Below, one piece after another: positions 29,717-43,899 of a DNA stretch of 48,653 nucleotides. The stretch covers positions 1 through 48,653 of the forward strand of contig PMDB01000076.1 of NCBI GenBank assembly GCA_003155495.1. The letters run 5' to 3'. The translations under genes were made by a program, and so were the position numbers. The stretch's first letter is position 1. Every line of letters starts with the position of its first letter. Source of the DNA: Ignavibacteriota bacterium (GTDB lineage: Bacteria > Bacteroidota > Ignavibacteria > UBA10030). A model generated the notes under the pieces. The model worked only from the letters and a program-made list of their open reading frames with translations. It ran no database searches and was not told the origin of the DNA.

Positions 29717-30856
29717 CTATCGAGTACTTTGTCCTACGAATTGCAGAACCCGTTTATCGAGTTGGGGTAGACTACCATCCCGCAAACATGCTTGCTGGTA
29801 TGCTAAAACAAAAGAGCGGCCCCCCTTCATTAATGTTGCCGTAAGCGCCGGCCTGCCAAGGTGTGTGTCAATCTCGTATGCCATCCGTAGACCGGAAGTA
29901 GCTCCGTAATTTCCTTCAAACGAACCGGAAAGATTTGCATCCATCATAAGGTCCTGTGCGCGTGCACGTGTCAGATTCGGCGATAGCATTTCTCCAAGGA
30001 CGTGGTTGAGCATGTCCACTGCTTTTGAAGTCGCGTCAAACCACTTTCGGGCAGGAGTCTCTCCTCCAAGATGTGTTTGCAGAGAAAGGTAGTACGCAAC
30101 ACCTTCATTCTGTACCAATTCAAGTAGCTGATCAGCAATGTTTCTTGGCCTTATAGAGTCAGGGAGGGATTTCTGTAGCACGGAAAATGCTGCATGAAAA
30201 CATTCATGTGCTGTTGTGCTAAGCACTTCAATGAACTGAGCTTGTTCGTTTGGCGGCCCTTCAATCAGGCGAGCAAGATTGACAACAATAACAGGTTCCC
30301 CTTCCTCATCATTGACAAAGGTGGGAGTGTCAAAATTCCATACAACATGGCGCACAAACGCTGATGCTCGTTCGTTTCCAATCACAACAAGATACACTGA
30401 AAATCGAGTAGAAATTTTTGCTTGCTCCGGAAAAAACGAAGCAATCGTTGCAACAATACGACGATCAAGCTGTCGTTGTTTAATATTGTTGAGAAGTTTT
30501 CGAAGCTCAGGTATATGATTTTTTGCAGGGAAAAAGCCATAAACATCACTTTCGAATCTCGTAATATTTCGCGCCAGTTCAAGCTGGTCACGAAAGTCAT
30601 CATCCGATTTCGCCGTGCGTGCCAGCATCACGCTTGTTGCTGCTGCAAGTTGATTACCGCGAAGTTTCGCAACTTGATCTACATTGCCGATACGGTGATC
30701 AAAAAAATCAAGTGTCTGCTCGGCGGCACTGTAGTCTACTCCCAACGAGAACTCGAAGTTCGGATGTGTTTGTGCACGCAACACTTCAGTCGTCAGACCA
30801 AGGAACAGCATTATTGCTGCAATTGTGTTTACGATAGTATATGATGCAAAGTTCAT
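29717..30856 (-). CDS. Exported putative zinc metallopeptidase (HExxH, DUF5700-like)
   Basis: A 379-residue protein with a signal peptide ending near VLRAQ (residues 1-29). A zinc-peptidase motif HECFH is seen in STTAHECFHAAFS. About 50 residues later NEGVAYYLS offers a Glu as third metal ligand, the layout of gluzincins. It resembles the DUF5700 or DUF2268-type putative Zn-dependent proteases, assigned from motifs only. Convergent with the spermidine-synthase-like gene (15-nt gap) and divergent from the EamA transporter. Substrate unknown. Confidence 0.75.
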   Translation of the reverse strand: MNFASYTIVNTIAAIMLFLGLTTEVLRAQTHPNFEFSLGVDYSAAEQTLDFFDHRIGNVDQVAKLRGNQLAAATSVMLARTAKSDDDFRDQLELARNITRFESDVYGFFPAKNHIPELRKLLNNIKQRQLDRRIVATIASFFPEQAKISTRFSVYLVVIGNERASAFVRHVVWNFDTPTFVNDEEGEPVIVVNLARLIEGPPNEQAQFIEVLSTTAHECFHAAFSVLQKSLPDSIRPRNIADQLLELVQNEGVAYYLSLQTHLGGETPARKWFDATSKAVDMLNHVLGEMLSPNLTRARAQDLMMDANLSGSFEGNYGATSGLRMAYEIDTHLGRPALTATLMKGGRSFVLAYQQACLRDGSLPQLDKRVLQFVGQSTR

Positions 30857-33663: not shown

Positions 33664-33793
33664 GACTCCCTCTTGAAAGAAAACCTATGGGTGACAATAA
33701 AATTATCTTTTCCATGATCGGTGCTGGATAAGTTGTGAAACCGAACCTTCAAATTCTGAATGATATATATCTCTCTTTTTTCAAGCGCCATCG
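33664..33793 (+). pseudogene. Decayed duplicate of the ettA 5' end
   Basis: Starting at CTCCCTCTTGAAAGAAAACC, this stretch matches the leader and first ~38 codons of ettA (42205-42330) with about seven substitutions in 115-120 bp. The ATG is at 33687. One substitution (GGAAAA to GGATAA) makes a stop at codon 15 (33729-33731), and similarity ends near 33793, so no function as ettA is possible. Similarity also appears upstream: ACA-TT--GTATATTATCA occurs at 33542-33560 and 42168-42186. The fragment and ettA bracket the serpin island in direct orientation. The remaining ~150 nt to 33945 show nothing recognisable. Confidence 0.85.
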
Positions 33794-33945: not shown

Positions 33946-34560
33946 CTATCTGTCAAGATTTTTTCGCAAGATTTTCAGCGCATAACTGATCTGGTGTTCC
34001 ACCGTTCTCACACTCAGGTGAAGGCTCTCGGCAATTTCCTGGTTTGTTTTCCCTTCGAACCTGCTTAATAAAATTATCTCCCGGCATCTTTGTGGGAGGT
34101 TATCGTTGATGATCGTTGTTATTTTTTCCTTCAATAAGGTAAACTGCAATGCCTCAGCTGGATCGTCTTGCTCGGATAATGCTAAAGAAGGAAGGAATTT
34201 CTTTGACCGTTCGCGCACTTTCTGATGTTTCATAGCATCGTAGATAAGATTTCTACTAATACGCAGGGCATATGCCAGAAAACTGAGGCGAGGTCGGAGT
34301 GAGCCGCGATGTTCCCAGATCCGGATGAATGTTTCCTGCACGATGTCGTGCGAAACATCCGTTTGCCCTGTTTGGAATAGCACCTGCCGAAACAAAACCG
34401 GTTGATACCGATCAAAGAGTATTCGAAAGGCTTCCATATCGGAGTCTTTTACTTGTTCAAGAAGTTGAATATCCGTCAGCTTTTGTTCCACTTTTCTATG
34501 AGAATGCAATATCAGAGAGATGATACTTATCAAGATAAGCCGAGCATACGAGAGTTTCAA
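33946..34560 (-). CDS. ECF-family RNA polymerase sigma factor
   Basis: A group 4 sigma factor of about 180-204 residues. Region 2 is seen in AFRILFDRYQPVLFRQVLF and DIVQETFIRIWEHRGSL. Region 4 has the helix-turn-helix LPQRCREIILLSRFEGKTNQEIAESLHLSVRTVEHQ, given here only by its ends. The form matches Bacteroidota sigma factors paired with FecR-type anti-sigma factors; a FecR gene lies 3.4 kb away in the same island. The start is uncertain: a TTG at 34560 has a good AGGAAA but gives an odd hydrophobic N-terminus, while a GTG at 34491 (VEQKLTDIQLL) would give a standard length. Divergent from the serpin gene. Confidence 0.92.
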   Translation of the reverse strand: MKLSYARLILISIISLILHSHRKVEQKLTDIQLLEQVKDSDMEAFRILFDRYQPVLFRQVLFQTGQTDVSHDIVQETFIRIWEHRGSLRPRLSFLAYALRISRNLIYDAMKHQKVRERSKKFLPSLALSEQDDPAEALQFTLLKEKITTIINDNLPQRCREIILLSRFEGKTNQEIAESLHLSVRTVEHQISYALKILRKNLDR

Positions 34561-34679
34561 TAGATTTCCTGCGAATTCAGTGAAATTTTTCAGTAAAAAA
34601 ATAGAAAAGGTATAGGTGATCGAGCATGGATAATCGTTGTAATTATGTAGGAAAGAAGAACGTTTCTCAGAAGCATAAT

Positions 34680-34694
34680 TTCAGCTTAGCTGAA
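34680..34694. promoter_or_regulatory. Palindrome in the serpin leader
   Basis: TTCAGCT T AGCTGAA, a perfect 7+1+7 palindrome ending 20 nt before the serpin ATG and just upstream of its TTGGAGG ribosome-binding site. It could be an operator or a leader hairpin. No copy was noticed before the other island genes. Confidence 0.4.
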
Positions 34695-34714
34695 TAAGCA
34701 ATTGGAGGTTCATT

Positions 34715-35944
34715 ATGAAAGTACAAGTCTTCGCTATTATTATTGCTACTATATTCATTAGCTGCAATCATCAGAGTACTGAACCGTCGCCATCGCCTGG
34801 GCAGCCAATTGTAAGAGATCTTACTGTATTGGAAAAATCCGTTGTCTCATCGGATAATTCGTTCGGATTGAAACTTTTTTCGCGCATGAATACAGTTGAG
34901 CAAAATAAGAACGTTTTTATTTCCCCCTTCAGTGTCTCAATGGCGTTAGGCATGGCGTTGAATGGTGCCGACGGTTCTACACTCGACTCTATGAAACAGG
35001 TTCTGGAACATTCCAACTGTACGATGCAGGAAATAAACGAATCATACAAGAATATCTCTACTATCCTTACGCATCTTGATTCGAAAGTTGTTTTTCAAAT
35101 TGCAAATTCAATTTGGTGCCGAAATGATTTTCAAGTTATTCCAGCGTTCCTCAATGATTGCCATGAATACTTCGATGCTGAGGCAGCATCGCTCGATTTT
35201 TCTTCTCCTAGCGCGGTTCAAACTATAAACAATTGGGTAAATTCTAAAACCAACGGAAAGATACCAACAATACTCGATCAGATTCCTCCTGAAGTAGTAA
35301 TGTATTTGATCAACGCTATATATTTTAAAGGTACCTGGACGTACCAGTTTGATCCTGCAAAGACAACAGATGCTGTATTTACTTTTTCTGCAGGAAATAC
35401 GGTCTCTTGTAGAATGATGAACCAGAAAACCACATATGCATATCATGCAACGGAACAAGCGCAAATCATAGATCTGCCATATAGTAATCGTTCATTTAGT
35501 ATGACAATTATATTACCGAAAGAAGGAATCAACATTGATCAGTTTGCTGCGGAATTAACTCGGCAACAATGGGATACATTCGTGAACAGCTTAGATTCTA
35601 CAGAGGTCGATTTATCTATGCCAAAATTCAAAGTGGAATATGAAAAGACGCTCAATGATGAACTGAGTGCCATGGGAATGGAGATTGCTTTTAGTGACTT
35701 CGCCAATTTTTCGCGTATTGCACATGCTTCCTTAGCTATTAGCGAAGTGAAACACAAGACATTTGTGGATGTGGACGAAGAGGGAACAGAAGCGGCAGCA
35801 GTAACTTCTGTCGGGATTACGCTTACCGCAATGCCTTTAATTCCAAGTATGCATGTCGATCGTCCATTTATCTTTGCCATTCGTGAACATCAATCGGGAA
35901 CAATTCTATTCATAGGAAAGATTGTTAATCCTGTTGCATTGTGA
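34715..35944 (+). CDS. Serpin (serine protease inhibitor) lipoprotein
   Basis: A 409-residue suicide protease inhibitor, probably anchored to the outer envelope: lipobox-like FISC with Cys17, followed by a Ser/Pro linker. Serpin signatures are clear: NWVNSKTNGKIP, LINAIYFKGTWTYQF and the C-terminal DRPFIFAIRE...GKIVNP. The reactive-centre hinge EEGTEAAAVTSVG (355-367) matches the inhibitory consensus EEGTEAAA, so it should be a working inhibitor. The loop that follows (ITLTAMPLIPSM) places the scissile bond near TLTAM, which points to elastase- or chymotrypsin-like targets. First gene of a run continuing to the TonB receptor and divergent from the ECF sigma factor. Confidence 0.95.
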   Translation: MKVQVFAIIIATIFISCNHQSTEPSPSPGQPIVRDLTVLEKSVVSSDNSFGLKLFSRMNTVEQNKNVFISPFSVSMALGMALNGADGSTLDSMKQVLEHSNCTMQEINESYKNISTILTHLDSKVVFQIANSIWCRNDFQVIPAFLNDCHEYFDAEAASLDFSSPSAVQTINNWVNSKTNGKIPTILDQIPPEVVMYLINAIYFKGTWTYQFDPAKTTDAVFTFSAGNTVSCRMMNQKTTYAYHATEQAQIIDLPYSNRSFSMTIILPKEGINIDQFAAELTRQQWDTFVNSLDSTEVDLSMPKFKVEYEKTLNDELSAMGMEIAFSDFANFSRIAHASLAISEVKHKTFVDVDEEGTEAAAVTSVGITLTAMPLIPSMHVDRPFIFAIREHQSGTILFIGKIVNPVAL

Positions 35945-36015
35945 GAGTGAATAAGAAGTTAGCGGCATTCTGTTAGGCGGCACAAAAAAGAATATTATCG
36001 AAAAAGGAGAAAAAA

Positions 36016-37419
36016 ATGAAAACATCTATCCTATGCATATTGATAACTTCCTTGCTCGTCGGATGCAAAGAGAAAGAGACTATCATTGAATATCGCGATT
36101 CCAATTCCCAATCTTTAGCAAAAGTTGCTGATTCATTTCATGGGCATATCGTTGGAAAAATCAAGCAGTTACAAAGTAACGCGGTGGTAATTGCAAGTCA
36201 AGTTGCCCCCGTGGAATCGACAAGTGTAAACTTGAATGATGGTTCTTTTGCCCTACAAAATCTCCAGATGGGGAATTATGATCTCACTATCCGGGCCGAT
36301 AACTTTCGTATTTACCAGCAGAGTAACGTGATGGTTCAGGGGGGCGGCATTAATTATATCGGAGAGATTGATTTATCCACTATTCCCGATCTCGTTACCT
36401 CTGTATACCCTGAGAACAAATCTGAAATTGTATATGATTGGCGTTATGGACGGATTTCAATATCGATTCTTTTCACACATCCCATGGATCGAGCCAGTGT
36501 CGAGAAAGCGTTCTCTACATACCCTCTAAGTACTGGAATATTCTATTGGGGAATGTATGCTCAGTCACCTCGGAATACTCTCTATGCAGCAACAAGTGAA
36601 AAGGCCGGTTATGACGCTGGTGCCGTCATAACAACGTTTAGTAAAATCACTTCTTTGACATATTCCATGTCCCAAAGTTCAACAATGGTCGATACTATGT
36701 ATACGATCACTTTGTCAACAGAGGCCAAAGATACATCCGGGAATAATTTACGATTCCCGTTGATATCCACATTCCGAACTGTGCAATCTTATATCACTTA
36801 TTCAGGTATTCAAACGGATCCCGTCAATAGAGACAATAATGTTGCACCAATGAACTATGGAGGTATCACTGTAACATTCCCTCGGCGTATGGATCCTGCT
36901 TCGACGGAAGCAGCTACGACCATTACTCCATCGATGAATCAAATATTTCTCTGGCCAAGCGAAAATGTTATGACTATTTATACCGGGGGCCCTTATCTCT
37001 CTGATACGACTATTACGGTCACTATTTCTGAGAGTGCAAAAGACAAAGATGGAACGCCTTTAAGTAAACCATTTAGTTTCTGGTTCCGGACTGCTCCTTT
37101 GCAAGTTGTCTCGACAACACCCGCCAATGCACAGTTGTATGTTGTGACAGATCAGTATATTACTGTGAATTTCAACAGTTATGTCAATAAAGCTTCTTTC
37201 CAGACGGCTTTTTCAATTACACCATCATTAAGCGGGTCATTTGTCTATGGATCGGGTTATTATTCTTCCACCAATCCTGATCAGATCACATTCATTCCAT
37301 CGTCAGCTTTTCAGCCCAATACAAAATATACTATATCGATCTTGTCATCGGTGGAGGATTTGTATGGCGTGTCGATGAAAAATCCGTTTACATTTTCATT
37401 TGTCACACGACCGAATTGA
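36016..37419 (+). CDS. Lipoprotein with regulatory-like and three Ig-like (SbsA-type) domains
   Basis: A 467-residue surface or periplasmic lipoprotein (lipobox LLVGC, Cys17). A carboxypeptidase-regulatory-like beta domain comes first (about 45-115: GHIVGKIKQL and LNDGSFALQNLQMGNYDLTI). Three Ig-like repeats follow with the SbsA/Big_5 pattern of a Pro-rich start, FxxxMD and a T-P-x end: SVYPENKSEI...FTHPMDRAS, DPVNRDNNVAPMN...FPRRMDPAS, and TTPANAQLYV...ITPSLSG. Such modules usually bind or space other proteins or polysaccharide. AAAAAGGAG precedes the ATG. Gap to the serpin is 71 nt and direction is the same, so coexpression is likely. Ligand unknown. Confidence 0.85.
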   Translation: MKTSILCILITSLLVGCKEKETIIEYRDSNSQSLAKVADSFHGHIVGKIKQLQSNAVVIASQVAPVESTSVNLNDGSFALQNLQMGNYDLTIRADNFRIYQQSNVMVQGGGINYIGEIDLSTIPDLVTSVYPENKSEIVYDWRYGRISISILFTHPMDRASVEKAFSTYPLSTGIFYWGMYAQSPRNTLYAATSEKAGYDAGAVITTFSKITSLTYSMSQSSTMVDTMYTITLSTEAKDTSGNNLRFPLISTFRTVQSYITYSGIQTDPVNRDNNVAPMNYGGITVTFPRRMDPASTEAATTITPSMNQIFLWPSENVMTIYTGGPYLSDTTITVTISESAKDKDGTPLSKPFSFWFRTAPLQVVSTTPANAQLYVVTDQYITVNFNSYVNKASFQTAFSITPSLSGSFVYGSGYYSSTNPDQITFIPSSAFQPNTKYTISILSSVEDLYGVSMKNPFTFSFVTRPN

Positions 37420-37507
37420 TATATATATACCATTTTACATGCCGTATCGGACACTATGCCGTCCGTTAACTGGCGGCAAATAATATTATTGTATTGAAGG
37501 AGGACTT

Positions 37508-37924
37508 ATGCGAACACTACTTACAATTGTTGCCTTCTTCTTTATTCTCATCGGTTGCAAGAAGGACAATTCAGTTCAGTCTGCTCTTTCGGGACCCTTC
37601 CAGTATATAGCATACGATACAATTGGAACTCTTGTCGTCAGCGGTTGGATGACAATTGATATTCAAGACTCAACTCACGTCACTGGAGAATGGCATTTTA
37701 ATAAAGTAAACAATCCACAGAACATTGGCCCACACACCGGCGAGGGTAACCTTGTCGGCGGATTTTATGATGGACAACTGCTGATTAACTTGAATCCAAA
37801 TTATGTTGACAATAATGTTTTCTTAAACGGAAAGATCCAAGCCAACACTTACAGCGGCACATGGATCTGGAGTGGTTTTCCCGGTCTTTTAAACCGAGGA
37901 AATTTTCAGGCGACAAGGGAATAA
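37508..37924 (+). CDS. Small lipoprotein, unknown function
   Basis: A 138-residue lipoprotein: MRTLLTIVAFFFILIGC gives a good lipobox (LIGC, Cys17) followed by KKDNS. The mature part is a small beta-rich domain with repeated short strands (TLVVSGWMTIDIQDSTHVTGEWHF, then GNLVGGFYDGQLLINL and GKIQANTYSGTWIWSG), the look of a lipocalin- or avidin-like beta-barrel. This is inferred from strand pattern, not matched to a family. AAGGAGG lies 5 nt before the ATG. It follows the Ig-like lipoprotein by 88 nt and precedes the FecR gene. Confidence 0.75.
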   Translation: MRTLLTIVAFFFILIGCKKDNSVQSALSGPFQYIAYDTIGTLVVSGWMTIDIQDSTHVTGEWHFNKVNNPQNIGPHTGEGNLVGGFYDGQLLINLNPNYVDNNVFLNGKIQANTYSGTWIWSGFPGLLNRGNFQATRE

Positions 37925-37981
37925 ATGAGGTCGTCAACCAACTACTGTATTAAAGATAAAAGAATGAATAATAACTAATGG

Positions 37982-38914
37982 ATGGTATGTATGTTAAAAA
38001 TATTCAATCGGTTTAGACGTCCTAATCGCATAGTTGATTCAGATGAAGCAACTCGCAGAATTGAGGGTGTCCTGGAATCCAGTGCCAGGCGTACTCAAAT
38101 GATTGATACGGAAACAGATAGACAATGGCGGCGCTTGAAAAGCACTCTGGAAAGCAGACAAAGCATAAACGACAACAGGTTTATTGCTACCCGGAGAGTT
38201 TTCTTTAAGCCGGCTTTTTCATTTGCTGTTGTGGGTACCATCCTCATTGTGATGAGTGTTATCTGGCTGCGTTCTTCTTCGTTGAAGATATATGAAACAG
38301 CTAAAGGTCAACACTCCACCATAACACTGCAGGATAGCACAGAAGTAATACTCAACTATATGTCGGAATTGAAAGTAAACCGTTCGCCCTTTGAAAAAGC
38401 CCGACATGTCACATTGAAAGGTGAAGCATTATTCCAAGTTCGCAGGAATGGAACACCGTTTATTATCACCACAGACATTGGCATTATACAAGTTCTGGGA
38501 ACACAGTTCAATGTTCGGGTGCGTGACGACAAGATGGAAGTGGCTGTTCTGAACGGCAGCGTACAGGTGAGTATGAACAAGAGCGGCAAGGACAGCAGTA
38601 TTATACTCACCAAAGGACAGATCGTTGTCTGTGATAAAAACCACTATCCGGAAGTGCCAGGATTGCTTCCTTTTTCTGATTATCCGGGTTGGACGCGCGG
38701 AAAATTCATGTTTTATCGGATGAATCTTCTTTCTGTGTGTAAAGAAATGGAATTACAGTTTGATGTCGTCATCAGAATTAAAACGCCGCAACTTAACAAT
38801 GTAACAATAACCGGAATTGTCAACGGCCAAAGTGTTGAGACCGCACTCACGACTCTTACGCAGCTTACCGGAAATACATATTGCTATGAAGACGGCAGCT
38901 ACATTATTTTTTAG
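37982..38914 (+). CDS. FecR-family anti-sigma factor
   Basis: A 310-residue single-pass protein (membrane segment about 76-96). The cytoplasmic part (1-75) should hold the ECF sigma factor. The periplasmic part has the FecR core: TLQDSTEVILNYMSELKV, VTLKGEALFQV, IIQVLGTQFNVRV and VAVLNGSVQV. It ends with a DUF4974-like domain (MELQFDVVIRI...ETALTTLTQLTGNTYCYEDG). Normally the periplasmic end contacts the signalling domain of the TonB receptor, which starts here in a 29-bp overlap. A start at the Met four codons in (37991) is possible. Cognate sigma factor is most likely the one at 33946-34560. Confidence 0.93.
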   Translation: MVCMLKIFNRFRRPNRIVDSDEATRRIEGVLESSARRTQMIDTETDRQWRRLKSTLESRQSINDNRFIATRRVFFKPAFSFAVVGTILIVMSVIWLRSSSLKIYETAKGQHSTITLQDSTEVILNYMSELKVNRSPFEKARHVTLKGEALFQVRRNGTPFIITTDIGIIQVLGTQFNVRVRDDKMEVAVLNGSVQVSMNKSGKDSSIILTKGQIVVCDKNHYPEVPGLLPFSDYPGWTRGKFMFYRMNLLSVCKEMELQFDVVIRIKTPQLNNVTITGIVNGQSVETALTTLTQLTGNTYCYEDGSYIIF

Positions 38915-41381
38915 TATCATCCTCGTTGTAGTACTGCCAAGAGAAGGGGCAGCTCAGAATACCGGCGAGCATTCTTCCTTTGAGTGGAAGAACATCCCTC
39001 TGAGAGCGTCGCTCGATTCACTTATGAAATGGTATACAGAATCCATTGTCTATCTCGACAAAGATGTTGAGGCGAAGGAAGTTATGGCTTTATGTGCAGA
39101 ATGCACCTTTGATCAGGCATTAAATGCAGTCTTGAGCGGCACATCACTAACCTGGATCAGACGGGGAAATCAGATCATTCTGAAAGAACAAAAAATTCAG
39201 GAGGCTCGACAATTCATTGCTATTTCCGGTACGGTCTCGGATTCAATAACGGGTGAATGGATTGTCGGTGCGAGCGTTCTGCTTCAGGATAGTGCAGATC
39301 AAACATATAGAACTGTCCGGCGTTGGTGTCCGACGAATGCGTTTGGATTTTTTTCCCTGCCGGATGTGCCGCTAGGACGTTATATACTGGTGATTCGTGC
39401 AATCGGGTACGAGGCCGTAAAACAGATTGTCGATTCAGTGGCCGAAGAATCTGTACGCTGCAATATTTCGATGGCTCAGAAAGATATTGTCGTGAAAGAA
39501 GTCACGATTGAAGGTCACCGGACTGCATTCGCTTCTGCTACTGGATTTGCTCGAAGTGCTTATCGCCGTTCTGTTCCGTCAGATCAGAATCAATATATGC
39601 TTGACGGTGGAAGGATCTACAATCCGGCTCATTTTGGAGGAGTGCTGAGCACCTTTAGCCCAGAAGTACTGACTGATGTGCAGGTTGTGATGGGTGGTCT
39701 CCCGCCGTACTACGGGGGACGTGTTGGAGGCATTGTTGATTTATCGATGCGTGATGGATCACGACAGCGATTTTCAGGGTCATTGGGATTAGGCTCTCTT
39801 GGTTCAAATCTATCGTTCGAAGGTCCTTTCGTCGACAATACCACGTTTCTCATGTCCGGCCGGAGAGGATATCCCGATATTGGAATGCAAATTTTTCCTC
39901 GAGATGGAGCAGTGCCGAGTCGGTTGGGTTCTTCCGAATTGATTACAAAGATCACTCATAGGTTCTCCGGTAGTGATCAGGTTTCGATGAGTGGATATCT
40001 GGGAGGTGATACTTATCAAAACAAGGTCATAGGGGATAAAGAGCAAGTGAACAATAACTTTTCATGGAGCAATCGCATGCTCGATCTTCGATGGATGAGC
40101 ATCGCGACGCCATCCGTGTTTGCGCATGCATCTATTATTTACAGCCGGTATGATTTCGATCTACAACATAGAATAATTGAAAATTCATTGTCCTCAAATA
40201 ACACTCTACTTTCTTCCGATTACGCTATTGAAGATTGGAGTTTCAATGCACACGCGGAAAATTATTATACGGAAGATCATACACTTCGGGCTGGTTTTGA
40301 ATTGATTCACCATGGAATACGCGCAACCATCAGCGAGTTTTCGAGTCAAGTTGCACCTTATGCTTTACAGAATTATTCCTCATGGGAAACTGCTGTGTAC
40401 TTGCAGGATCAATGGAAGATTTTGCCTCGCTTTCTTGCAGAACTTGGCGGACGTGTTACAAGCTTTACGAGTGATAAAGGTTCATTCTCGGCAATTGACC
40501 CGCGGTTTTCCTTGTTAGTAATACTTGATGAACAGACACACCTTTACAGCTCCCTTTCTGCTATCAATCAATTTCTGCATCCATATAGAAGCAGCGGTGT
40601 ATTTCTTCTGTATCCGACAATTTTTTGGTATCCTTCCACTGAAAAGATGCGCCCATCCACATCACTTCATGGTACACTTGGAATAGAACATAATTTTACG
40701 GATGATGCATACATCATTTCCGCCGAATCATATTATCGAATTATGAATAACCTTCATGAATTTGGAAATGATACGACAGCATTGCATTCGAATAATTTGG
40801 AACAATTGTCGCTTTCAGGAACAGGAAGAACTTATGGTCTTTCGTGTAGCTTGAGAAAGCGACTGGGAGATGTGACAGGATCGATTAGTTACAACCTCTC
40901 TTGGTCTTTTGAATCATTTATGGAAATTAACGGCGGTCGGGAATTTGCACCACCATTTGACCGTCGGCATGAATTACAAGTAACTTCATCATATGAGGTA
41001 ACAGAGAATTGGACGCTCGGTGCTCTATGTGTTGTCACATCGGGGCAATCTCTTCCCCTGGAGCCAATATCAATTCCTCAAAAGGCTAACGACGTGAGGT
41101 CAGATGCGTACGTAAATGTGTCTCCCAGGGAATTTACAGACATCAACGGCAGTCGACTGCCGGGTTTTCAACGGTTGGAACTGAATATTATGCATCGGTT
41201 CATGCTTCGAAATTTTCCTTGTCAATTTTCACTCCGCTTGTTGAATAGTTATGGTCTTCTTGATCCTTTCGTCTGGAAATTGCAGAGAAACGCTTCAAAT
41301 GAATTACGATGGAATGCCACATTACGGAATGTATCTCTCTTCCCGTTGTACCCGGCAATGGAAATCATGGTGAGGTTCTGA
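38886..41381 (+). CDS. TonB-dependent receptor with STN signalling domain
   Basis: An outer-membrane receptor-transducer of 831 residues. The ATG at 38886 gives a signal peptide ending REGAAQ; upstream in-frame Mets lie deep in fecR. Domains: STN (about 32-100, ending RRGNQIILKEQ), a carboxypeptidase-regulatory-like domain (110-185), a plug (about 212-320; MLDGGRIYNPAHFGG and GGLPPYYGGRVGGIVDLSMRDG) and a beta-barrel closing with MVRF. The stretch before MLDGG lacks the usual LPGV segment of the plug, making it about 35 residues shorter than normal. No SusD-like partner is present. It should signal through FecR to the ECF sigma factor. Ligand unknown. Confidence 0.9.
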   Translation: MKTAATLFFSIILVVVLPREGAAQNTGEHSSFEWKNIPLRASLDSLMKWYTESIVYLDKDVEAKEVMALCAECTFDQALNAVLSGTSLTWIRRGNQIILKEQKIQEARQFIAISGTVSDSITGEWIVGASVLLQDSADQTYRTVRRWCPTNAFGFFSLPDVPLGRYILVIRAIGYEAVKQIVDSVAEESVRCNISMAQKDIVVKEVTIEGHRTAFASATGFARSAYRRSVPSDQNQYMLDGGRIYNPAHFGGVLSTFSPEVLTDVQVVMGGLPPYYGGRVGGIVDLSMRDGSRQRFSGSLGLGSLGSNLSFEGPFVDNTTFLMSGRRGYPDIGMQIFPRDGAVPSRLGSSELITKITHRFSGSDQVSMSGYLGGDTYQNKVIGDKEQVNNNFSWSNRMLDLRWMSIATPSVFAHASIIYSRYDFDLQHRIIENSLSSNNTLLSSDYAIEDWSFNAHAENYYTEDHTLRAGFELIHHGIRATISEFSSQVAPYALQNYSSWETAVYLQDQWKILPRFLAELGGRVTSFTSDKGSFSAIDPRFSLLVILDEQTHLYSSLSAINQFLHPYRSSGVFLLYPTIFWYPSTEKMRPSTSLHGTLGIEHNFTDDAYIISAESYYRIMNNLHEFGNDTTALHSNNLEQLSLSGTGRTYGLSCSLRKRLGDVTGSISYNLSWSFESFMEINGGREFAPPFDRRHELQVTSSYEVTENWTLGALCVVTSGQSLPLEPISIPQKANDVRSDAYVNVSPREFTDINGSRLPGFQRLELNIMHRFMLRNFPCQFSLRLLNSYGLLDPFVWKLQRNASNELRWNATLRNVSLFPLYPAMEIMVRF

Positions 41382-41427
41382 TTATGGAGAGTAAATCTAT
41401 TATTTCAAGACTATCTTGGACAACAAA

Positions 41428-41886
41428 ATGAGACGTAAATATTTTTTTCTAGGATGCCTGATTGCTCTTTTCATGAGCTGTAAAGAAAACCCATCCCAAC
41501 CTGTTCAGCTTACACCCTACGAGCGATGGCATTCTTTTCATTTGCACAATTATACTATCGATCAGGTTCGAATGTGCTTTTGTCCGGGTGCCGGTGGTAC
41601 TGTAAGAGTAACAATTCGCTCTGATACTATAGCGTTGGTCATGAGACTCTTCGATACCACTTATGTGCCATCTCCAATACCTCAGTATTACCTAACAGTT
41701 GACTCGCTTTTTTCCATCATCCGTACGAGGCCTGGAGATTCGATTGTTGTGACGTATAATGAAACTTATGGATATCCGGAAAAACTCGATATCAATCCTC
41801 AACAACACCCAGTGGATGGTGGAGTATTGTTCGAGACCTCGAATCTACAAATTCTATTCAATTGGGACGGGAATGACAAATCATGA
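41428..41886 (+). CDS. DUF6174-like lipoprotein
   Basis: A 152-residue lipoprotein counted from the ATG at 41428 (MRRKYFFLGCLIALFMSC; the Cys follows FMS); an ATG four codons earlier also fits. The mature domain has the DUF6174 pattern: W...HNYTIDQVRMCFCPGAGG, a central VDSLFSIIRTR and VVTYNETYGYPEKLDINP. Family function is unknown. It is the last gene of the island, 46 nt after the receptor, so probably the end of the same transcript. The CFC pair near the start of the domain is conserved in the family as I know it. Confidence 0.75.
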   Translation: MRRKYFFLGCLIALFMSCKENPSQPVQLTPYERWHSFHLHNYTIDQVRMCFCPGAGGTVRVTIRSDTIALVMRLFDTTYVPSPIPQYYLTVDSLFSIIRTRPGDSIVVTYNETYGYPEKLDINPQQHPVDGGVLFETSNLQILFNWDGNDKS

Positions 41887-42225
41887 TGAGGGCGCAATAC
41901 ATCGTATTTTTTTATGCTGCTTTGTCCTGTCTCACCTTCAGCTCGCTAAAGTCATTGTAGTTCCAAGATGGAATACAAGTCTTCGGTACTTTCATCTTAT
42001 CTTATTTAGTCATCTCTTAAAAAGTCACAGTTCATCATTCACTTGAAATTTATCGCTGCAATTGTAAGTAAGAATAGCACAGAGCATCGTTTTTACAAAT
42101 TAGCATTATCAAAATGAATAAATTCTTTCTTCTTTTACTTTCCATTCTCATTTTAGTAACCTTCAGAACATTTTTGTATATTATCAGAAGAATAATCGTG
42201 TTATCTCCCTCTTGAAAGAAAACCT
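41887..42225. other. Intergenic region before ettA
   Basis: 339 nt with no supported gene. AT-rich, with short frames only. A promoter-like GTATATTATCA (42176-42186) shared with the remnant's upstream region lies about 40 nt before ettA. CTCCCTCTTGAAAG (42205-42218) is the conserved leader found before both copies. No terminator was recognised after the DUF6174-like gene. Confidence 0.5.
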
Positions 42226-43899
42226 ATGAGTGACAATAAAATTATCTTTTCCATGATTGGTGTTGGAAAAGTTGTGAAACCGAACCGTCAAATTCTGAAG
42301 GATATATATCTTTCTTTTTTCTACGGCGCGAAGATTGGAGTGCTTGGGTTGAACGGCGCAGGCAAGAGTACGCTTCTTCGAATTATTTCCGGTATTGACA
42401 AAGATTATATTGGCCAAATCACGGCGCAAAAAGGAATTACCTTTGGGTTTCTTTCGCAAGAACCGGAGCTTGATCCGACAAAAACCGTCAAGGACATTGT
42501 TGAAGAAGGCGTTCAGGAAATTGTAAATTTAGTGAAAGAATACGAAACTGTAAATTTTCAGCTTGCCGAACCGGATGCTGACTATGATACATTACTGGAA
42601 AAACAAAGCAAACTCCAGGAAAAGATCGATCACCTGAATGCATGGGATCTTGACAGTAAACTTGAGCAGGCGATGGATGCGCTGCGTTGTCCGCCGCCGG
42701 AAACATTCATCAAGGTACTCTCCGGCGGTGAGCGCCGTCGTGTCGCACTCTGCCGTCTCTTGTTACAGGAACCAGATGTGTTGCTGCTTGATGAGCCGAC
42801 CAATCATCTCGACGCCGAATCTGTTGCCTGGTTGGAACATCATTTAGGTCTCTACCAAGGTACCGTCATCGCTGTCACTCACGATAGATATTTTCTCGAC
42901 AATGTTGCCGGGTGGATACTTGAACTTGACCGCGGCGAAGGAATTCCTTTTGAAGGCAATTATTCCTCATGGCTCGATCAAAAGATACGTCGATTGGAAG
43001 TGGAAGAGAAACAGGAATCAAAACGTCAGCGTGTATTGCAGCGAGAACTTGAGTGGGTGCGTTTAAATCCAAAAGGTCGTCATGCGAAAAGTAAGGCACG
43101 CATCGCTTCGTACGAAAAAATGCTTACTGAACAAACAGATAGACGCGACGAAGAGATGGAAATCTATGTTCCACCCGGGCCACGGTTGGGGGATGTTGTC
43201 ATTGAGGCATCTGGAATATCAAAAGCATATGGCGACAGGATTCTTTTCGAAAATATGAACTTCGCACTCCCTCCCGGCGGTATTATTGGTGTCATCGGTC
43301 CCAACGGCGCTGGCAAAACCACTCTCTTCAAACTCATTACCGAACAGGAGGAGCCGGATGAGGGAACAATCAAAATTGGCGATACGGTGAAACTTGCCTA
43401 CGTCGATCAAATGCGACCTCTTGATCCTGACAAAACAATCTGGCAGGAAATCTCCGGTGGAGAAGATCTTATTATGCTTGGTAATCGCGAAGTAAACTCG
43501 CGCGGGTACGTAGCACGATTCAATTTCAGCGGAATCGATCAACAAAAACCGGTCGGGAAACTCTCCGGCGGTGAAAGGAACCGCGTTCATCTTGCAAAAG
43601 TCTTGAAGGACGGCGCCAACGTCCTGCTGCTTGATGAACCAACCAATGACCTTGACGTCAACACACTTCGAGCATTGGAAGAAGCACTTACTGATTTTGC
43701 AGGATGCGCTGTGATCATCTCGCATGATCGCTGGTTCCTCGATCGTGTGGCGACACATATTTTAGCATTTGAAGGCGACAGCAGTGTCGTATGGTTCGAT
43801 GGAAATTACTCTGAATACGAAGAGTACCGTAAGAAACAGCTTGGCATCAGTGCCGATCAGCCGCACCGCATGAAGTACAAGCGGCTAACCAGAAGTTAA
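42226..43899 (+). CDS. ettA: Energy-dependent translational throttle EttA (ABC-F ATPase)
   Basis: Ribosome-associated ABC-F protein that gates entry into the elongation cycle according to ATP/ADP. The 557-residue length matches EttA (555 in E. coli). Two ABC cassettes: Walker A GLNGAGKST (41-49) and GPNGAGKTT; signatures LSGGERRRVAL and LSGGERNRVHL; Walker B LLLDEPTNHLD and LLLDEPTNDLD. The arm lies inside cassette 1 and the linker (EEKQESKRQRVLQRELEWVR) between them. The C-terminus HRMKYKRLTR is the usual EttA ending. A decayed copy of its first 38 codons lies 8.5 kb upstream, marking the left edge of the serpin island. Confidence 0.96.
   Translation: MSDNKIIFSMIGVGKVVKPNRQILKDIYLSFFYGAKIGVLGLNGAGKSTLLRIISGIDKDYIGQITAQKGITFGFLSQEPELDPTKTVKDIVEEGVQEIVNLVKEYETVNFQLAEPDADYDTLLEKQSKLQEKIDHLNAWDLDSKLEQAMDALRCPPPETFIKVLSGGERRRVALCRLLLQEPDVLLLDEPTNHLDAESVAWLEHHLGLYQGTVIAVTHDRYFLDNVAGWILELDRGEGIPFEGNYSSWLDQKIRRLEVEEKQESKRQRVLQRELEWVRLNPKGRHAKSKARIASYEKMLTEQTDRRDEEMEIYVPPGPRLGDVVIEASGISKAYGDRILFENMNFALPPGGIIGVIGPNGAGKTTLFKLITEQEEPDEGTIKIGDTVKLAYVDQMRPLDPDKTIWQEISGGEDLIMLGNREVNSRGYVARFNFSGIDQQKPVGKLSGGERNRVHLAKVLKDGANVLLLDEPTNDLDVNTLRALEEALTDFAGCAVIISHDRWFLDRVATHILAFEGDSSVVWFDGNYSEYEEYRKKQLGISADQPHRMKYKRLTRS

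What the first reader, a model, noticed from the sequence alone, without database searches (positions are those of the whole stretch)
33946..41886. A serpin wired into an ECF sigma / FecR / TonB-receptor signalling circuit
Seen: an ECF sigma factor divergent from a serpin lipoprotein with inhibitory hinge EEGTEAAA, then an Ig-like lipoprotein, a beta-rich lipoprotein, FecR, an STN-containing TonB-dependent receptor overlapping fecR, and a DUF6174-like lipoprotein. Known: STN receptor-FecR-ECF sets sense an outer-membrane ligand and switch on their own operon, usually for iron or glycan uptake. Here the probable output is a surface protease inhibitor plus adhesive lipoproteins, with no SusD or glycan enzyme. 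Inference: a protease-sensing and protease-neutralising surface defence, perhaps against predators, hosts or rival secreted proteases.
Basis: partly seen in the sequence, partly recalled or inferred. Interest (0 to 1): 0.8.

Follow-up and report, generated by a model that had tools for sequence, protein, structure and literature searches.

The report
Protease inhibitor wired to surface-sensing operon
A bacterium of the Ignavibacteria (Bacteroidota) carries, as one insertable block, a gene switch that senses something at its outer surface and very probably turns on a serpin, a suicide inhibitor of proteases, and related bacteria have repeatedly placed serpins under such switches, which offers a way to find out what bacterial serpins are for.

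Summary
At 33946-41886 lie a TIGR02985 ECF sigma factor, a divergent inhibitory-type serpin lipoprotein, three further predicted lipoproteins (one Big_5, one DUF6174), FecR and a TonB receptor with an N-terminal STN-like domain, in one operon with no SusD. It is more than chance. A sharply conserved promoter (ATAGGK-N17-CGTT) lies in the ECF/operon gap of 16 of 18 orthologous sets, against 1.0 expected; here it is at 34612-34638, directly before the serpin. The receptor family occurs in 22 of 98 genomes of the order. Serpins are linked to it in five, from two serpin lineages (one clade rejected, AU p=0.01). The block is an insertion between sel1 and abcF, flanked by a duplicated target and absent at that site in four same-genus genomes checked. 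More broadly, an ECF lies within 2.1 kb of a serpin in 19 of 121 non-redundant serpin groups (4.2 expected). So serpin control by cell-surface signalling is well supported in silico. That the receptor senses proteases is untested. The receptor's commonest partner is an uncharacterised ~605-aa protein, which also neighbours serpins in other phyla. I found no paper describing ECF-controlled serpins. Verdict: a new variant of a known kind.

The parts
33666..33782 (+). Left remnant copy of the abcF 5' end (117 nt, 94% identical to 42205-42321, in-frame stop): flank of the insertion
33946..34491 (-). ECF sigma factor, TIGR02985 (open frame runs to 34560; GTG 34491 preferred by orthologue alignment)
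34612..34638 (+). Conserved ECF-type promoter ATAGGT-N17-CGTT, directed at the serpin operon; 16 of 18 orthologous sets
   Evidence: the only exact match in the window
34715..35944 (+). Serpin lipoprotein, inhibitory hinge EEGTEAAAV, reactive loop VTSVGITLTAMPLIPS; P1 probably Thr (inference)
36016..37419 (+). Predicted lipoprotein with Big_5 domains and a CarboxypepD_reg-like stretch; homologue in the G014 set
37508..37924 (+). 138-aa predicted beta-rich lipoprotein of no known family; orthologues at four other receptor loci
37982..38914 (+). FecR-type sigma regulator: FecR and FecR_C domains, one predicted TM helix near residues 77-96
38886..41381 (+). TonB-dependent receptor: STN-like domain, CarboxypepD_reg, plug, barrel
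41428..41886 (+). DUF6174 lipoprotein (listed frame begins TTG 41416); a DUF6174 gene also sits in a serpin operon of another class (L319)
42127..42321 (+). Right copy of the target: sel1-proximal 60 nt (42127-42186) and abcF 5' end (42205-42321), in front of intact abcF

Best explanation
This is a self-contained, transferable cell-surface-signalling operon. The likely working is as follows. Without signal, FecR holds the ECF sigma factor at the inner membrane. An unknown ligand binds the TonB receptor; the receptor's STN domain then engages FecR's periplasmic C-terminus and the sigma factor is released. Sigma binds the ATAGGK-N17-CGTT promoter at 34612 and transcribes serpin, three lipoproteins, fecR and receptor, so the circuit amplifies itself. 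The serpin, lipid-anchored in the outer membrane (face undetermined), inhibits serine proteases by loop insertion. Best-supported purpose: inducible protection of the envelope against proteases. Shown in silico: gene set, promoter and its conservation, recurrence, insertion as a unit, inhibitory sequence features. Inferred from families: sigma/FecR/receptor signal flow. Guessed: ligand and protease target. Rough split: serpin under this sigma factor about 0.85; serpin is an active inhibitor about 0.85; ligand is protease-related about 0.3. The stated confidence is for the wiring plus the envelope-protection role, not for protease sensing.
For: Promoter in 16/18 divergent gaps, against a mean of 1.0 (max 4) in random windows of the same loci, and 1/18 on the opposite strand. 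Genes between the serpin and DUF6174 are 46-88 nt apart or overlap, and no terminator-like site falls in these gaps. Recurrence in G027, G030 (tandem serpins), G026 and G065. Serpin-linked receptors: one well-supported clade of four plus G065, whose serpin belongs to another lineage (AU p=0.01). Linkage in 5 of 6 genomes holding both genes. Hinge conserved (0.93) while P4-P4' is hypervariable (0.13, body 0.58), as expected of inhibitors with changing targets. Closest solved structure is the inhibitor miropin. Only strong FecR of the genome. Other Bacteroidota serpins also sit in ECF operons. Precedent: the B. breve serpin is induced by papain through a two-component system (PMC8012564).
Against: No expression or binding data. 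STN match is below Pfam's cut-off. Seventeen of 22 receptor sets lack a linked serpin, so the signal need not concern proteases. Lipoprotein face (surface or periplasm) is undetermined. The promoter motif was derived from and tested on related loci. Four of the five serpin linkages probably descend from one event.
Confidence: 0.68

Rival explanations
1. The system is a nutrient importer (peptide, siderophore or other ligand), and the serpin merely protects captured protein, peptide or the receptor from local proteases while it is taken up.
For: The STN receptor is a TonB barrel of a widespread class. Most orthologous sets have no linked serpin but carry other envelope proteins. STN/FecR/ECF sets classically control uptake (PMC9249621, PMC11637429).
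Against: No SusD, siderophore, hydrolase or peptidase gene in the operon. Serpins recruited twice into this set, and into ECF operons without any TonB receptor.
Confidence: 0.3
2. The serpin restrains the bacterium's own secreted or periplasmic proteases, or the proteolysis that activates the circuit (negative feedback).
For: Signalling of this type is driven by periplasmic proteolysis of the sigma regulator in Pseudomonas (PMC11637429). Serpins neighbour T9SS-type secreted propeller proteins.
Against: Known activating proteases (Prc, CtpA, RseP) are not the chymotrypsin/subtilisin types serpins usually trap (general knowledge). No protease gene is conserved in the module. The reactive loop diverges faster than expected for a fixed self target.
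Confidence: 0.12
3. Chance or hitch-hiking neighbourhood: the serpin landed beside the ECF set without being controlled by it.
For: Genome-level co-occurrence of serpin and receptor is not significant (6/22 vs 11/76, p=0.20).
Against: Promoter position, tight spacing, two recruitments, and survival of linkage down to about 50% receptor identity; linkage by chance about 3e-12 under a simple model.
Confidence: 0.04

Closest known systems
FecI-FecR-FecA / FoxI-FoxR-FoxA cell-surface signalling
   Same: ECF sigma, membrane sigma regulator and TonB receptor with N-terminal signalling domain; local output
   Different: Output is a serpin and lipoproteins, not iron uptake; sigma divergent from the operon; ligand unknown
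PUMA3 (VreA-VreI-VreR) of Pseudomonas aeruginosa (PMC2729926)
   Same: Cell-surface signalling with secreted-protein rather than uptake output
   Different: VreA is an unusual receptor component and the regulon is dispersed; here a full TonB receptor and one local promoter; no serpin there
Bacteroidetes SusCD-ECF-FecR glycan loci
   Same: ECF/FecR/STN receptor logic
   Different: No SusD and no glycan enzymes here
[quoted passage not shown]
   Same: Bacterial serpin under a dedicated adjacent sensor system
   Different: Two-component system in a Gram-positive, not ECF/FecR/TonB signalling
Miropin of Tannerella forsythia (PDB 5NCS)
   Same: Closest solved serpin by sequence; same hinge EEGTEAAAV
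   Different: Different reactive loop; I know of no ECF/FecR/TonB set beside it (not checked here)
SigV-RsiV of Bacillus subtilis (PMC4183432)
   Same: ECF system that senses an attacking enzyme (lysozyme); works-like analogy for the defence reading
   Different: The anti-sigma factor itself is the receptor; unrelated parts

Membership tests
Inhibitory serpin | Full serpin fold by profile | tested here: met
   PF00079 2-370/370, 391 bits
Inhibitory serpin | Hinge P17-P9 ExGTEAAAA-like (consensus in PMC8233489) | tested here: met
   EEGTEAAAV; P9 Val as in miropin
Inhibitory serpin | Covalent complex with a target protease | not testable with these tools
   needs bench assay
FecI/FecR/FecA-type cell-surface signalling | ECF sigma of the Bacteroidetes FecI-like subfamily | tested here: met
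   TIGR02985 135.2 bits, cut-off 126.4
FecI/FecR/FecA-type cell-surface signalling | FecR with one TM helix and periplasmic FecR domains | tested here: met
   PF04773, PF16344; hydrophobic peak at residues 77-96
FecI/FecR/FecA-type cell-surface signalling | TonB receptor with N-terminal STN domain | tested here: inconclusive
   Barrel above cut-off; STN 25.0 bits vs cut-off 28.4, region conserved in orthologues
FecI/FecR/FecA-type cell-surface signalling | Sigma-dependent promoter before the operon | tested here: met
   Conserved motif in 16/18 sets, in silico only
FecI/FecR/FecA-type cell-surface signalling | Ligand-dependent release of sigma from FecR | not testable with these tools
   needs bench assay
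SusCD polysaccharide utilisation locus | SusD-like partner and glycan-active enzymes | tested here: not met
   No such gene in 33946-41886
Mobile genetic element | Occupied and empty sites with flanking duplication | tested here: met
   Empty sel1/abcF site in G028, G030, G031, G029; 117-nt duplicate
Mobile genetic element | Own recombinase | tested here: not met
   None between 33666 and 42321; a tyrosine recombinase adjoins the G027 set only

The most novel reading that the evidence does not exclude
A closed protease-sensing loop: the STN receptor recognises a product of protease attack (a cleaved serpin, a serpin-protease complex or released peptides), and the circuit then makes more serpin. 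Ignavibacteria and other Bacteroidota would have evolved such ECF-wired serpin immunity several times, with the ~605-aa p610 protein as a common surface partner.
Probability: 0.15. Interest if true: 0.88.

Novelty: new variant of a known kind. Interest (0 to 1): 0.66.

Why it matters
The physiological role and regulation of bacterial serpins are described as enigmatic or little known (PMC8233489, PMC10090351). A dedicated surface-sensing circuit with a defined promoter gives a direct handle: find the inducing ligand and the serpin's purpose follows. The enrichment of ECF genes beside serpins across Bacteroidota suggests a general rule rather than a single curiosity, and the p610 family is a strong unknown to study next.

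Tried and rejected
(a) A generic serpin-FecR association: 0 of 178 serpin loci outside the order have FecR within 6 kb, so the FecR form is restricted. (b) A dispersed sigma regulon: the motif is not enriched genome-wide (36 matches vs 31 for the reversed control); of the two other exact matches, one lies within an open reading frame and one runs antisense to open frames. (c) Structure of the 138-aa lipoprotein: single-sequence model pLDDT 41, unusable, no fold search made. (d) Structure of p610: four sequences, pLDDT 30, unusable; only long beta strands are suggested. (e) p610 and the 138-aa family against the PDB by profile: no p610 hit; only weak chance-level hits (E 0.6-1.2) for the other. 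(f) The DUF5700 putative peptidase at 29717-30856 as a target or partner: it is also present in same-genus genomes without the module at this site, so it belongs to the backbone. (h) Serpin-receptor co-occurrence as evidence: not significant; linkage, not co-occurrence, carries the argument.
Full report
WHAT IS THERE. The window lies in a draft genome of 3.59 Mb (G000). Its class is Ignavibacteria in the Bacteroidota: genomes listed as 'same class' are 100% identical over 13 kb to records titled Ignavibacteria, Ignavibacteriales and Melioribacter. An ECF sigma factor of TIGR02985 is on the minus strand. Divergent from it run serpin, Big_5 lipoprotein, 138-aa lipoprotein, fecR, TonB receptor and DUF6174 lipoprotein, with gaps of 71, 88, 63 or fewer (depending on the fecR start), -29 and 46 nt and no terminator-like site in the gaps. 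The receptor's barrel and CarboxypepD_reg domains are above Pfam cut-offs; STN and Plug are recognisable but below them. FecR has one membrane helix and FecR/FecR_C domains. It is the only strong FecR in the genome; the other hit scores 35.6 bits. The serpin is the genome's only one.

THE PROMOTER. I aligned 330 nt upstream of the ECF in 18 orthologous sets, read towards the operon. An unbiased search for spaced words gave ATAGG-N18-CGTT in 9 of 16, where shuffles gave at most 4. As RTAGGK-N16-18-CGTT with at most one mismatch it is found in 16 of 18 sets, 11 of them perfect. Random windows of the same loci average 1.0 of 18, and the opposite strand gives 1 of 18. It stands before the serpin where the serpin is first (G000, G027, G026, G030) and before fecR where fecR leads (for example G065). 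In the window it is at 34612-34638 and is the only exact match. Genome-wide the motif is not enriched and the two other exact matches are not convincing promoters. The regulon therefore looks local. This is the main evidence that the serpin belongs to the sigma factor; it is in silico only.

RECURRENCE. Orthologues of the receptor (full length including the STN region, 39-63% identity) occur in 22 of 98 genomes of the order. In a 391-genome class sample, full-length matches stay within the order; matches elsewhere begin at residue ~232 and lack the STN region. Serpins are linked in five: G000, G027, G030 (two serpins in tandem), G026 and G065. On the receptor tree G000, G027, G030 and G026 form a clade (100/100), while G065 lies apart. 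Their serpins form a clade of five (100/98), but the G065 serpin groups with serpins unlinked to the receptor; holding all six together is rejected (AU p=0.01). In G065 the serpin also sits at a different place, 58 nt after the receptor. So serpins were recruited into this receptor system at least twice.

PARTNERS. Clustering of neighbours gives the core ECF, FecR and receptor plus variable envelope proteins: a ~605-aa protein I call p610 in 12 of 22 sets, serpin in 5, the 138-aa family in 5, Big_5 in 2. p610 and receptor co-occur across genomes (16/22 vs 9/76, p=8e-8). p610 has no Pfam, NCBIfam or PDB relative; its beta strands and terminal aromatic residue suggest an outer-membrane barrel (inference; the structure model failed). 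p610 also adjoins serpins without this receptor: G002 and G005 in the order, Melioribacter, Neomarinimicrobiota, KSB1 and others, 8 of 178 loci within 6 kb against about 0.15 expected under a rough model (some of these loci are near-duplicates or close relatives). In G531, outside the class, serpin, DUF6174, p610 and a TonB receptor with a CarboxypepD_reg domain lie in one row.

ECF-WIRED SERPINS IN GENERAL. I gathered 196 serpin loci, 121 groups at 70% identity. An ECF gene lies within 2.1 kb in 19 groups. With 5.8 sigma-region-4 genes per Mb, 4.2 are expected (P=4e-8; groups are not fully independent). Arrangements differ: ECF, a 400-540-aa protein of no known family, then serpin (families f7, f25); serpin, then ECF, then a protein with a weak outer-membrane-barrel match (f58, f60, f63, f41); ECF divergent or upstream (f56). 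FecR is near none of the 178 loci outside the order. The FecR/TonB version is thus a restricted form of a broader habit.

MOBILITY. In four same-genus genomes without the module at this site, sel1 and abcF face each other with nothing or little between (113 nt in G028). In the window the block sits between them. The left flank keeps the original sel1-abcF junction and the first part of abcF, now with a stop. The right flank repeats a sel1-proximal stretch and the whole of abcF (117 nt at 94%). The circuit therefore arrived, or was duplicated, as a unit. No recombinase lies within it.

THE SERPIN. Hinge EEGTEAAAV is conserved across the order (0.98 identity) while P4-P4' is among the most variable stretches (module serpins 0.13, body 0.58). 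Nearest solved relative is miropin, an inhibitory serpin. By loop register P1 is probably Thr, with Leu and Ala beside it, which would suit elastase- or subtilisin-like proteases better than trypsin (inference). A lipobox is present; surface or periplasmic face cannot be told.

HOW IT PROBABLY WORKS. By analogy with characterised FecR/FoxR systems (PMC11637429), a ligand on the receptor changes contacts between STN domains, FecR is processed, sigma is freed and the operon rises. The product is an envelope-anchored protease inhibitor with helper lipoproteins. Protection against proteases is the simplest purpose. Protease sensing is plausible, because the B. breve serpin is induced by papain through its own sensor (PMC8012564), but nothing here shows what the receptor binds, and most receptor orthologues have no serpin.

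LITERATURE. No held paper contains serpin, FecR and sigma factor together; a search pairing serpin with anti-sigma or ECF terms gave, at the top of its list, one paper with all three, on Bifidobacterium growth and with only a few occurrences of each term; it was not read. The library is open-access only, so absence is weak evidence of novelty.

VERDICT. Observation confirmed. Wiring well supported in silico. Protease-sensing defence plausible but unproven. New variant of cell-surface signalling, with a broader, testable pattern behind it.

Noticed in passing
L043:11224-13032, L115:3841-5658, L319:3444-5306 and others: p610, a ~605-aa protein family without Pfam, NCBIfam or PDB relatives, recurs beside serpins in several phyla and beside the receptor in 12 of 22 sets; absent from the window's genome.
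   Followed up: partly
L248:3847-7116, L271:3648-7150, L320:3867-7277, L335:6040-9818: Serpins in other ECF operons with no FecR or TonB receptor: ECF, 400-540-aa unknown protein, serpin; or serpin, ECF and a barrel-like protein.
   Followed up: partly
L119:8301-9368, L043:7479-9809: Sortilin/BNR propeller proteins, at least one with a T9SS-type tail, lie near serpins; the linked cluster touches 43 of 121 groups (single-linkage, so an upper bound).
   Followed up: no
L115:2107-3066: Tyrosine recombinase (PF00589) beside the G027 serpin/receptor set, a possible route of transfer.
   Followed up: no
window 33666-33782: Broken copy of the abcF start with an in-frame stop, a scar of the insertion.
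   Followed up: yes
window 29717-30856: DUF5700 putative zinc peptidase, conserved in same-genus genomes without the module at this site; backbone gene.
   Followed up: partly
A2 columns around C70 and C73 of the receptor (window 38886-41381): Two conserved cysteines (CxxC-like) within the STN region of the receptor family, unexplained.
   Followed up: no
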